Of a DNA stretch of 64,000 nucleotides, positions 47,801 to 50,800 are shown one piece after another. Origin of the DNA: Chaetoderma sp. LZ-2023a (lineage: Eukaryota > Mollusca > Caudofoveata > Chaetodermatida > Chaetodermatidae); NCBI GenBank assembly GCA_034401795.1, contig CM067359.1:144342233-144406232 (forward strand). The letters are read 5' to 3'. The notes beneath the pieces were generated by a model. That model did no database searches and was not told the DNA's origin. It saw nothing but the letters and a program-made list of their open reading frames with translations. The number at the start of each line of letters is the position of its first letter. The first letter of the stretch is position 1. A program made the position numbers and the translations under genes.

Positions 47801-50800
47801 TTTTCTTTGTCTGAAAATGGACATTTCTCTTGAGCACTGCACAAGGCGTTTTTTTGGCTGATATGAGTGTCAAAGGGTTAACAAGAGAGTACCTATAGTT
47901 AAATAGTAGAGATCTTCTGACCTACTTTTGATATGACACACCATTTAGTTGAAACAACATGAACAGATAGTGTTTTACTTATAATTGTAGAAATGAAAAT
48001 TCTCCATTACACACTAATAACTACACTACAGCTCAACAATAACGTAACAAGTTTCCAAAACAAAATAAAACGTACTGTTGAATATTTTCGAATTAATGTG
48101 ATTGGAAGCCATTGCTGCTTTAGTTGCTGCCTTAAAGCAGCAATGGCTTCCAATCAAATTAGTCCAAAATATTCAACATAACAATTTCTTACATCGTGTT
48201 CAAAATTGTAAGCACTAACTAGTAACTAGCATGTTTATGTTTTGAGAACATGTACACTTACAATTTATGAGTTGCACTGTCGTGTAAATGGCCTTGCTGT
48301 TTGCTATATCAGTACAGAGTGGACAATTCAAACAATACTTCAACCATCCCACACCTCAAATACCCAGTCAAGAAATATTCAAAATCTAACTGATAAGACA
48401 TAATTATAAGTTACACTGCAACAAGAGCCATACACCGTAACAAGAGCATGGGTCAGCGACATCAGATAACATTATAATTAATAATAATCATTGTACCATT
48501 AAATCTGTCAATGGCATCTTGTCGTAGTGCTCCTGTAATACCACCGTCAATACGCTCATACTTATAGCTCAGGTGTTCCAGAAAGTCCTCAAGAATATCT
48601 AGCACCTTCGTCATCTGCAAATATTCATAGATTATTTCATTGTCAGCCACTAACATAAATACTATTCCGTCCTTTTCGAACCAGTGTAGTTAAGACATCA
48701 ACAGCTCTCCGTAGCATTGTAGCCAAAATGCATACAAAAATCTACACCGGCTGTCTTCTGCTGACAGTAACAATGGACGTTTCCAGTTTTAGCTATGCCC
48801 GCCCATCTCTATCTACGCTCCACCAACACCACGTCCGAGTCAGGATCGATCGATCTCTGAACTCTCTTACTATCAATTTCTAGAAAACTATACAAGAAAG
48901 CTGTTAAATGTTTTGAAACTAATTTGACTGGGCGCAGTTGCTGCCATAGACATAGGATTCGCACGTGTCATACTATTAAGAGCTAATGACGGACTATTCC
49001 GAATCATTCATGACATCGGCATACACATCACTTAGTTGATTATGATGTCATATGATGGATGGAAAAACTTGAAAAGGTCCATTAAGCTGAGCAGAATAAT
49101 CAACAGAATAATAGGAGTTTTGGTCCAGAAAATTGACATCTTGGTTTATTGAAGGTTCAATTTGAAGGCCGAGAAGGCTATTTTTGTAAGTTTACCACTG
49201 GAATAACTGGATCTAGGTTATCAAGCCAGTACTTCCAGTAGGAAGTTTTCATAAATTCTCTTGGTCTGCAAATCAAGATTACTTACGACTACTGCATGCA
49301 GAAGACATTTTCTCGTCGGTTTGATCAACTTGAGTACTCTGCTAATTATTATTCTTTATGTAACAGTAATTGGCAAAGATGTGGCCTAGTTTTTTATTCT
49401 GAAACTTTTTCATTCTTACAATTACAGACCAAAAATGAGCATTTCCTTGTGATGCAAGGAACATTTTGTTGAACGTTTTGCAACTAATTTGATTGGGAGC
49501 TGTTGCTGTCCATGGCATCAACAGTGAGCTGGCGCTTACGAAGGCAACAACACGTTTCATTAAAATTAATTTCAAATTATTCATCAGCTTTCCTGTATAG
49601 GGAGGGGTCTTGAAATTGAGACACTGGAATTTCAAGGGTTAACTGGATACCAATACTAAAGAGTAGTCTTGCTCAACTATATACATGCAGGAAAATTTGA
49701 ACGATGTCTGTATCATTAACAATTTTCTTTAAATTATCATTATATTTTATACAGCCAAGATACCATGTTATTCAATACAGTTTGCATTCAGTGCTACATA
49801 TCAGTTACAACAAATTAAGACAAGAAATATTAAATTCAATATTTGGAAATAAAATCAGTCATTCCAGTGGTAACTTTTCAAAAATAGTCTTCTCTTGGTC
49901 TGCAAATGGAAATTTTTTGAGAAAATTTAAATTTTCTTTAACAAATTGGATAGTTAAAAGTGAGATAAATTGACCCAATCCGTTAAACGGTCACCTGTGT
50001 CTGTTCATATTAGGTTACCTGTGAAAAGATGAGGACTCGATGTCCTTCGGCATTGCATTTTCTCATCTTTTCAAACGAACTTACCTGTGAAAAGATGAGG
50101 ACACAATGTCCTGCGCATTGAGTTTTCTCATCTGTTCAAACTTACCTGTGAAAAGATGAGGACTCGAAGTCCTGGAGCATTGCATTTTGTCATCTGTTCA
50201 AACTAACTTACCTGTGAACAGATGAGGACACGATCCCCTTGCACATATAGTTTTCTCATCCGTTCAAACTAACTTACCTGTGAAAAGATGAGAATACAAT
50301 GTCCTTGAGAATTGAGTTTTCTCATCTGTTCAAACTAACTTACCGTAACCCGTGAAAAGAAAGATGAGGACACGATGTCCTTTGGCATTGCGTTTTCTCA
50401 TCTGTTCAAATTAACTTACCTGTGAAAAGATGAGAACACGATGGCCGTGAGCATTGAGTTCTCTCATCTGTTCAAACTAATTTATCTGTGAAAAGATGAG
50501 GACACGATGTCCTTTGGCATTGCGTTTTCTCATCTGTTCAAACTAACTTACCTGTGAAAAGATGAGGACACGATGGCCTTGAGCATCGAGTTTCTTAAGC
50601 ATCATCTCCAGAAGCTCTAGCTTTCCACATGCCCGTATCAAAGCAGTACCTTCAAACGCACCATTAGATAGCTTCACTGCATCCTGAAGGAGAAAATACA
50701 GACTCACTCAAATAATCATTCAAAGTTGTGATAGCCGGGGTTAGTCCATAGATAATTTGCTAACATGATTCAAAAGGGGATGCCTTTTAAGCCTACCTTT

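What the first reader, a model, noticed from the sequence alone, without database searches (positions are those of the whole stretch)
50008..50683. Minisatellite that multiplies a real splice donor after Mi-2 exon 7
Directly visible: the last 33 or so bases of exon 7 with its CAG/GTAAGT donor and about 32 intronic bases are repeated eight more times downstream on the gene's strand, at 61-66-base spacing. Six units keep CAG/GTAA. Because the exon ends in phase 0, splicing at any later copy would read Val-Ser-stop straight after the last Gln of HRVLIFSQ. The array therefore offers many decoy donors whose use would be destroyed by nonsense-mediated decay or would truncate the helicase. I recall minisatellites spanning exon-intron junctions being reported in amphioxus; I cannot verify that here. 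Whether this tunes Mi-2 output or is harmless is inference.
Basis: partly seen in the sequence, partly recalled or inferred. Interest (0 to 1): 0.86.

Follow-up and report, generated by a model that had tools for sequence, protein, structure and literature searches.

The report
Repeated splice site in mollusc gene
A short stretch containing the junction between an exon and an intron of a probable mollusc's Mi-2 gene is repeated eight more times inside the intron; this is a known but seldom reported kind of repeat, it recurs at other genes of the same genome, and it is probably tolerated rather than used for control.

Summary
A 9-unit, 66-bp minisatellite (50000-50593, gene on the minus strand) repeats about 34 exonic and 32 intronic bases around the donor of Mi-2/CHD exon 50552-50683. 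Six of 8 copies keep CAG|GTAA; using any copy adds Val-Ser-stop. This is an amphioxus-style "mirage", but the 2.44-Gb genome is a probable mollusc. New: (1) a second, decayed array spans another Mi-2 donor (47292). (2) Most units are dual sites, pyrimidine tract plus CAG fused to GTAAGT, so mis-splicing at 6 of the 7 copies with a GT could be mended by a second splice giving the exact mRNA (predicted, not observed). (3) Among 29 other donor arrays listed by two scans, 12 were judged by eye to begin at an exon end, 7 of them homology-supported; 5 of the 12 clearly repeat exonic bases. Against a regulatory role: donor bases are not better kept than the rest of the unit, Mi-2 exon edges have fewer local repeats than its introns, and donor arrays give fewer matches than a reversed control. 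Best reading: a tolerated, near-neutral mirage. No RNA data were available.

The parts
50552..50683 (-).
   Evidence: translation and homology
50000..50593 (-). minisatellite ('mirage') of 9 units, 66 bp, spanning the donor
   Evidence: TRF; sequence; unit alignment
50546..50551 (-). authentic donor GTAAGT after CAG; U1 duplex -12.1 kcal/mol
50454..50519 (-). unit 2; donor dead (CAG|ATAAAT), AG end kept
50379..50453 (-). unit 3; CAG|GTAAGT, 5% different from unit 1
50312..50378 (-). unit 4; insertion moves the donor to ACG|GTAAGT, no AG end
50246..50311 (-). unit 5; dual site CACAG|GTAAGT
50180..50245 (-). unit 6; dual site CACAG|GTAAGT
50119..50179 (-). unit 7; dual site CACAG|GTAAGT
50053..50118 (-). 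unit 8; dual site CACAG|GTAAGT
49988..50052 (-). unit 9; CAG|GTAACC, weaker U1 duplex -8.0, 26-38% different from the other units
47114..47319 (-). second mirage: 26/33-bp units spanning the donor of exon 47292-47417; none of the five further donor-like copies listed keeps CAG|GT
   Evidence: TRF; boundary scan; sequence and copies
47292..47417 (-). Mi-2 exon ([11 protein letters not shown]) whose donor CAG|GTATGTG lies in the second array
48497..48614 (-). next exon ([11 protein letters not shown]...), normal partner of the 50552 donor

Best explanation
The array is a mirage minisatellite: a 66-bp stretch across the exon-intron junction was tandemly duplicated and then grew and diverged by slippage or unequal exchange, inside a Mi-2 gene whose introns are unusually rich in minisatellites (shown: anatomy; inferred: mutational route). 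Copies could persist only on the intron side, because the donor nearest the acceptor remains the working one (exon definition; inferred). The extra donors are tolerated rather than used for control. Three things limit their cost: weak competition from longer exons; destruction by NMD of products that read Val-Ser-stop; and, particular to this array, the fact that 7 of 8 copies end in a pyrimidine tract plus CAG. A transcript spliced from such a copy to the next exon still carries an intron from the first donor to that CAG, and could be re-spliced to the exact normal mRNA; this applies to 6 of the 7 copies that still have a GT donor (sequence shown; splicing inferred).
For:: tandem array far above chance, one match in the genome; donor 9-mer identity 0.875 against 0.851 for the rest; 38 of 58 nine-base windows as well conserved; the aligned consensus 7-mer CAGGTAA is intact in 5 of 8 copies, equalled or exceeded by 32 of 66 windows; 3 of 38 Mi-2 exon edges have a local copy against 175 of 800 intronic points of the gene (P=0.021); 0 of 36 edges at 18 further exons against 70 of 718 flank points (P=0.025); minisatellites cover 24.8% of the gene body 44.7-62 kb, 11.4% of the 20 kb upstream, 2.0% of flanks of 18 further exons, 0-0.6% of four arbitrary 10-kb pieces; pyrimidine fraction 0.75-0.81 in AG-ended units against 0.56-0.81 in 8 real acceptors; 6 of 9 YAG|GTRAGT in 84 kb (both strands) lie in the array; similar arrays begin at exon ends elsewhere; published mirages reported not to disturb splicing.
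Against: No transcript data. Five copies have a U1 duplex energy equal to the true donor (-12.1), so strength alone predicts competition. Under uniform divergence six intact CAG|GTAA of eight is more than expected (P=0.018); the pyrimidine tract-AG-donor block ranks 9 of 66 windows and tract+AG alone 4 of 66, which leaves room for selection. With a different test and wider background, edges were not depleted: 2 of 22 edges against 56 of 585 points in 144 kb (P of 2 or more = 0.64). The acceptor matrix rests on 8 sites (3 of 11 were dropped because my coordinate did not fall just after an AG); AG-ended units score 2.9-5.3, low among real acceptors (3.2-10.0), and 5-14% of all AGs score as well. 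No branch point was tested.
Confidence: 0.72

Rival explanations
1. Regulatory decoy array: the extra donors compete with the real one and divert a set fraction of Mi-2 transcripts to NMD, so copy number tunes Mi-2 level.
For: Five decoys as strong as the true donor by U1 pairing; every use gives Val-Ser-stop, 123-524 nt before the junction for copies with a GT; six of eight keep CAG|GTAA, more than uniform divergence predicts (P=0.018).
Against: Donor bases not better kept than neighbouring bases; Mi-2 exon edges have fewer local repeats than its introns; one copy dead and one displaced; in amphioxus globin and Adh3 genes mirages were reported not to interfere with regular splicing (passages of PMC3087553).
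Confidence: 0.08
2. Recursive or nested splicing ladder: the dual sites are really used, so this intron is removed in steps through one or more units, with no change in the mRNA.
For: Units match the ratchet-point form, pyrimidine tract + YAG|GTRAGT (form recalled and as in the abstract start of PMC8605326), and hold the only such sites with a pyrimidine fraction of 0.75 or more in 84 kb; tandem dual-specific sites are used in human UBC (PMC10809524).
Against: The intron is only about 1.9 kb; single steps of 61-76 nt may be too short to splice (inference); acceptor scores moderate; no RNA evidence.
Confidence: 0.15
3. Assembly artefact: misassembly inflated or created the copies.
For: The assembly has gaps nearby (500-N runs at 10563 and 36063) and C-terminal Mi-2 exons on a separate small contig C1727.
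Against: Units differ from each other by 5-38%, so they are not one read pasted repeatedly; a second, different array lies at 47292 and similar arrays at other genes.
Confidence: 0.05

Closest known systems
'Mirage' minisatellites of amphioxus: Adh3, globins BflGb6 and BflGb9 (PMC3087553, passages) and the tandem repeats at splice sites of lancelet PGBD5, with TnC as cited there (PMC3902484, passages)
   Same: Tandem copies of an exon-intron boundary, imperfect units, many copies keep AG/GT, authentic boundary at the array's edge.
   Different: Other phylum (probably a mollusc) and much larger genome; donor side, 66 bp, 9 units; here units double as 3' splice-site-like sequences. Length differences between haplotypes and normal splicing were reported there; neither could be tested here.
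Tandem arrays of dual-specific splice sites in human UBC and VCX3A (PMC10809524; abstract, passages and Discussion read)
   Same: Tandem repeat whose units carry AG|GT able to serve as donor and acceptor; the authors argue such expansions are less harmful because they can be spliced out.
   Different: In UBC the repeats are coding and use is supported by RNA; here they are intronic, carry a stop codon, and use is only predicted.
Variable tandem repeats at exon-intron boundaries of human paralogues (PMC2812944, passages)
   Same: Minisatellite-type repeats that can lie at an exon-intron boundary and involve cryptic splice sites.
   Different: Found through copy-number differences between recent paralogues with transcript support; the passages do not describe an array of one intact donor.
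Intron gain by DNA repeat expansion in Cryptococcus (PMC2395259, passages)
   Same: Repeat expansion that multiplies splice sites.
   Different: There whole introns were multiplied and are spliced; here no new intron has arisen as far as the sequence shows.
Recursive splicing ratchet points (PMC8605326, abstract start in a search listing only)
   Same: Juxtaposed acceptor and donor within an intron.
   Different: Those are described as abundant in long introns; here there is a 66-bp array in a 1.9-kb intron.

Membership tests
Mirage minisatellite | tandem repeat whose unit spans an exon-intron boundary, including exonic bases | tested here: met
   unit = about 34 exonic + 32 intronic bases
Mirage minisatellite | the boundary belongs to a real coding exon | tested here: met
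   Mi-2/CHD4 homology across the exon and neighbours
Mirage minisatellite | copies retain the AG/GT splice signal | tested here: met
   6 of 8 copies CAG|GTAA
Mirage minisatellite | length instability between alleles or somatic cells | not testable with these tools
   one assembly only
Mirage minisatellite | regular splicing undisturbed | not testable with these tools
   no RNA data
Dual-specific splice site array | AG|GT core in the repeat units with pyrimidine tract upstream and donor consensus downstream | tested here: met
   6 of 8 downstream units AG|GT (5 with GTAAGT); pyrimidine fraction 0.75-0.81 in AG-ended units
Dual-specific splice site array | same site used both as 5' and 3' splice site | not testable with these tools
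   needs RNA junctions or lariats
Recursive splicing ratchet point | YAG|GTRAGT after a pyrimidine tract, used to regenerate a donor | tested here: inconclusive
   motif present, use untested, intron short
Decoy splice regulation | decoy sites under selection | tested here: not met
   donor not more conserved than the rest of the unit by window ranks, though a uniform-divergence model gives P=0.018 for six intact donors

The most novel reading that the evidence does not exclude
In this lineage, junction-spanning minisatellites are a continuing source of dual splice sites: arrays seeded at real donors survive preferentially when each unit also ends in a pyrimidine tract plus AG, because a mis-splice can then be re-spliced to the correct mRNA. 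They would be self-healing arrays that let introns grow by repeat expansion without harm.
Probability: 0.17. Interest if true: 0.72.

Novelty: new member of a known kind. Interest (0 to 1): 0.5.

Why it matters
In the papers I could search, arrays called mirages are reported from amphioxus; variable repeats at exon-intron boundaries are also reported from human paralogues (searches; the library lacks most subscription papers, and I read passages, not whole papers). Finding junction-spanning arrays at several genes of a probable mollusc suggests that they are a general by-product of minisatellite birth at splice sites. They offer natural experiments on how the spliceosome picks one of several equally strong donors, and on how repeat growth at splice sites is tolerated.

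Tried and rejected
Amphioxus as the source: rejected; the genome is 2.44 Gb (amphioxus size recalled as about 0.5 Gb) and the best named Mi-2 matches are bivalves (Potamilus 73% over 100%, Mytilus 71%). Species naming by COX1: both matches sit on contig C18 without stops in the standard code; L003 reads as a fused ccoN/ccoO-type protein by my recall, which looks bacterial, so it did not help. Pseudogene or partial duplicate: thought unlikely, since C-terminal Mi-2 exons missing nearby lie on contig C1727 and no other set of exons reached the identity of the window's set (which scored 53 of 101 candidates). Genome-wide enrichment of donor arrays: not supported; 138 matches against 781 for the reversed pattern, and 172 against 876 (matches are not independent loci). 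Dual sites as a general rule: exon-linked arrays have a higher pyrimidine fraction before AG (mean 0.57, n=12, against 0.46, n=17; one-sided P=0.009), but labels and the 'second copy' were chosen by eye, sets are small, and at least three of the 17 fragments never leave the array: exploratory only. Homology searches that gave nothing: Pfam for L047, L057, L061, L063, L074 and only weak unrelated matches for L060 and L073; PDB for L047 and L057; the joint protein search found only COG1. A survey by Pfam families (PF00063, PF12774, PF00225) was sent but did not complete, nor was the third gap range of the donor pattern. Canestro 2002 on Adh is not held; I know it only through PMC3087553. PMC6905558 (passages) has a 27-bp minisatellite in an abalone intron; the passages do not place it at a boundary.

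Full report
What is there. On the minus strand the window holds the ATPase part of a Mi-2/CHD3-4-5 gene. Peptides from ten exons between 61914 and 45758, joined by hand, align end to end with human CHD4 (PDB 6ryr, residues 715-1246, E 2.7e-279); an eleventh exon lies at 44737-44895. Eight further upstream coding exons lie at window coordinates 65.8-77.1 kb, outside the window. C-terminal exons were not found in the window or 30 kb beyond but sit on a small contig, C1727, so an assembly gap is the likely cause. No other set of exons in the genome reached the identity of this one (which scored 53 of 101 candidates).

The array. TRF reports 50000-50593, period 66, 8.9 copies. Unit 1 is the end of the exon plus its donor; eight more units follow into the intron. 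Units differ from each other by 5 to 38%. Six of eight copies keep CAG|GTAA, five of them CAG|GTAAGT with the same U1 duplex energy as the true donor (-12.1 kcal/mol); one copy is dead, one displaced by an insertion. Reading on into the intron gives Val-Ser-stop, 123 to 524 nt before the junction for the seven copies with a GT. A genome search returned only the array itself.

The organism. The genome has 2.44 Gb. The best named Mi-2 matches are Potamilus 73% and Mytilus 71%, then Saccostrea, a nemertean, an annelid and gastropods, with unnamed proteins between. For a COG1 exon all four matches are molluscs: a limpet, a chiton, a scallop and an abalone. I call it a mollusc, probably a bivalve; no species is named.

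A second array in the same gene. Of the 22 edges of the 11 window exons, two carry strong local copies: the 50552 donor and the 47292 donor, whose 26/33-bp units have decayed; none of the five further donor-like copies listed there keeps CAG|GT. With all 19 exons, 3 of 38 edges have a local copy, the third weak, against 175 of 800 random intronic points in the gene (P=0.021). Edges of the upstream exons were placed by homology, not by known splice sites. At 18 further exon loci (15 of other CHD/SNF2 genes, 3 of Mi-2 on C1727) 0 of 36 edges had copies (one edge, in L016, was misplaced because the contig ends early) against 70 of 718 flank points (P=0.025). A looser comparison does not show depletion: 2 of 22 edges against 56 of 585 points over 144 kb (P=0.64). 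So exon edges are not rich in such repeats and may be poor in them. The Mi-2 gene body 44.7-62 kb is a minisatellite hot spot: 24.8% coverage, with 11.4% in the 20 kb upstream, 2.2% in 1-36 kb of the window, 2.0% in flanks of the 18 further exons and 0-0.6% in four arbitrary 10-kb pieces (a small sample).

Dual sites. The exon end TCCTCATCTTTTCACAG|GTAAGT is a pyrimidine tract plus CAG fused to a donor. Pyrimidine fractions in the AG-ended units are 0.75-0.81; in the 8 real acceptors used they are 0.56-0.81 (3 of 11 acceptors were dropped because my coordinate did not fall just after an AG). On a matrix from those 8, the AG-ended units score 2.9-5.3 against 3.2-10.0 for real acceptors left out one at a time; 5-14% of all AGs score as well. 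In 84 kb, both strands, there are nine YAG|GTRAGT; six lie in this array and only these have a tract of 0.75 or more. Seven of 8 copies end in AG, and 6 of the 7 with a GT donor do. For those six, a transcript spliced from the copy to the next exon would, after a second splice from the first donor to that copy's CAG, be the exact normal mRNA. This follows from the sequence by construction; it is not an observation of splicing. PMC10809524 reports RNA evidence that tandem dual-specific sites are used in human UBC, and argues that such expansions are buffered because they can be spliced out.

Is the array under selection? The donor 9-mer is not better kept than the rest (0.875 against 0.851; 38 of 58 windows as good). 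CAGGTAA is intact as an aligned 7-mer in 5 of 8 copies, matched or beaten by 32 of 66 windows (the alignment puts a gap in one copy whose raw sequence still reads CAGGTAA). Against this, a uniform-divergence model makes six intact donors unlikely (P=0.018), and the tract-AG-donor block ranks 9 of 66, tract plus AG alone 4 of 66. I find no good case for selection on the donors, but the data do not exclude it.

Elsewhere in the genome. Two pattern scans for three CAGGTAAGT with gaps of 45-75 and of 15-44 gave 138 and 172 matches; the reversed pattern gave 781 and 876, so donor arrays are not enriched by this measure. The listings were cut off; they showed 29 loci besides this one. I fetched a 5' flank at all 29 (at C4:305 kb, where arrays run both ways, only that of the minus-strand one). 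By eye, 12 begin at an exon end; in at least three of the rest (L051, L062, L068) the fragment never leaves the array. Seven of the 12 are supported by homology: COG1 (80% over 35 aa), Ig I-set (E 1.2e-4, just under Pfam's cut-off), ANF receptor (E 5.8e-6), DnaJ (E 3.6e-10), SLC30A1-like (E 1.5e-22), lysyl-tRNA synthetase (E 4.5e-4, all 15 matches that enzyme) and ABCC5-like (E 1.4e-8). Five have no such support (L057, L060, L061, L063, L074). In five of the 12 (L049, L059, L060, L061, L072; three of them homology-supported) the unit clearly includes exonic bases (12-17 of 17 identical); in the other seven the repeat shares little beyond the last few exonic bases and the donor (4-7 of 17). In 8 of the 12 the real donor is not itself CAG|GTAAGT (read), so copies with that consensus lie downstream of a weaker real donor; the scan selects for such copies. 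Because the scan selects arrays with a donor motif, and real donors may be a sizeable share of all such motifs (not measured), 12 of 29 is not proof of enrichment. It does show that the feature recurs in this genome.

Mechanism and verdict. The simplest account is neutral: minisatellites are frequent in this gene, some arise across a junction, and those in which the donor nearest the acceptor still works survive. Exon definition, NMD and possibly re-splicing keep the cost low (inferred). Regulation by copy number is possible but unsupported. In kind this is a mirage minisatellite, known from amphioxus Adh3 and globin genes and lancelet PGBD5, here in another phylum and made mostly of dual splice sites.

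Noticed in passing
15389-26096 and 26080-36052: About 10-kb segment present twice in tandem in the window at 92-98% identity in long blocks, ending beside a 500-N gap; may be a recent duplication or two haplotypes placed in a row.
   Followed up: no
50779-51753: 29-bp minisatellite, about 34 copies, ending about 95 bp upstream of the acceptor of exon 50683, so this exon lies between two minisatellites.
   Followed up: partly
56362-57435: 39-bp minisatellite, about 27 copies, ending about 30 bp upstream of the acceptor at 56331; the consensus unit carries, on the gene's strand, a CTTGGCAG that resembles a 3' splice site (my reading).
   Followed up: no
44700-62000: Mi-2 gene body is a minisatellite hot spot (24.8% coverage against 2.2% or less in all comparison pieces but the 20 kb upstream, which has 11.4%); reason unknown.
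   Followed up: partly
G000 contigs C18 and C2524 (L002, L003, L012, L014): Contigs with bacterial-looking genes (long SNF2 frames without introns; two COX1-family matches on C18) in the host assembly, perhaps a symbiont or contaminant.
   Followed up: no
G000:C1727:964-3717: Small contig with C-terminal Mi-2 exons missing from the window; may belong in one of the 500-N gaps.
   Followed up: partly
37345-42881: Reverse transcriptase-like reading frames of a mobile element downstream of the last Mi-2 exon found in the window (my reading of the frames, no search).
   Followed up: no
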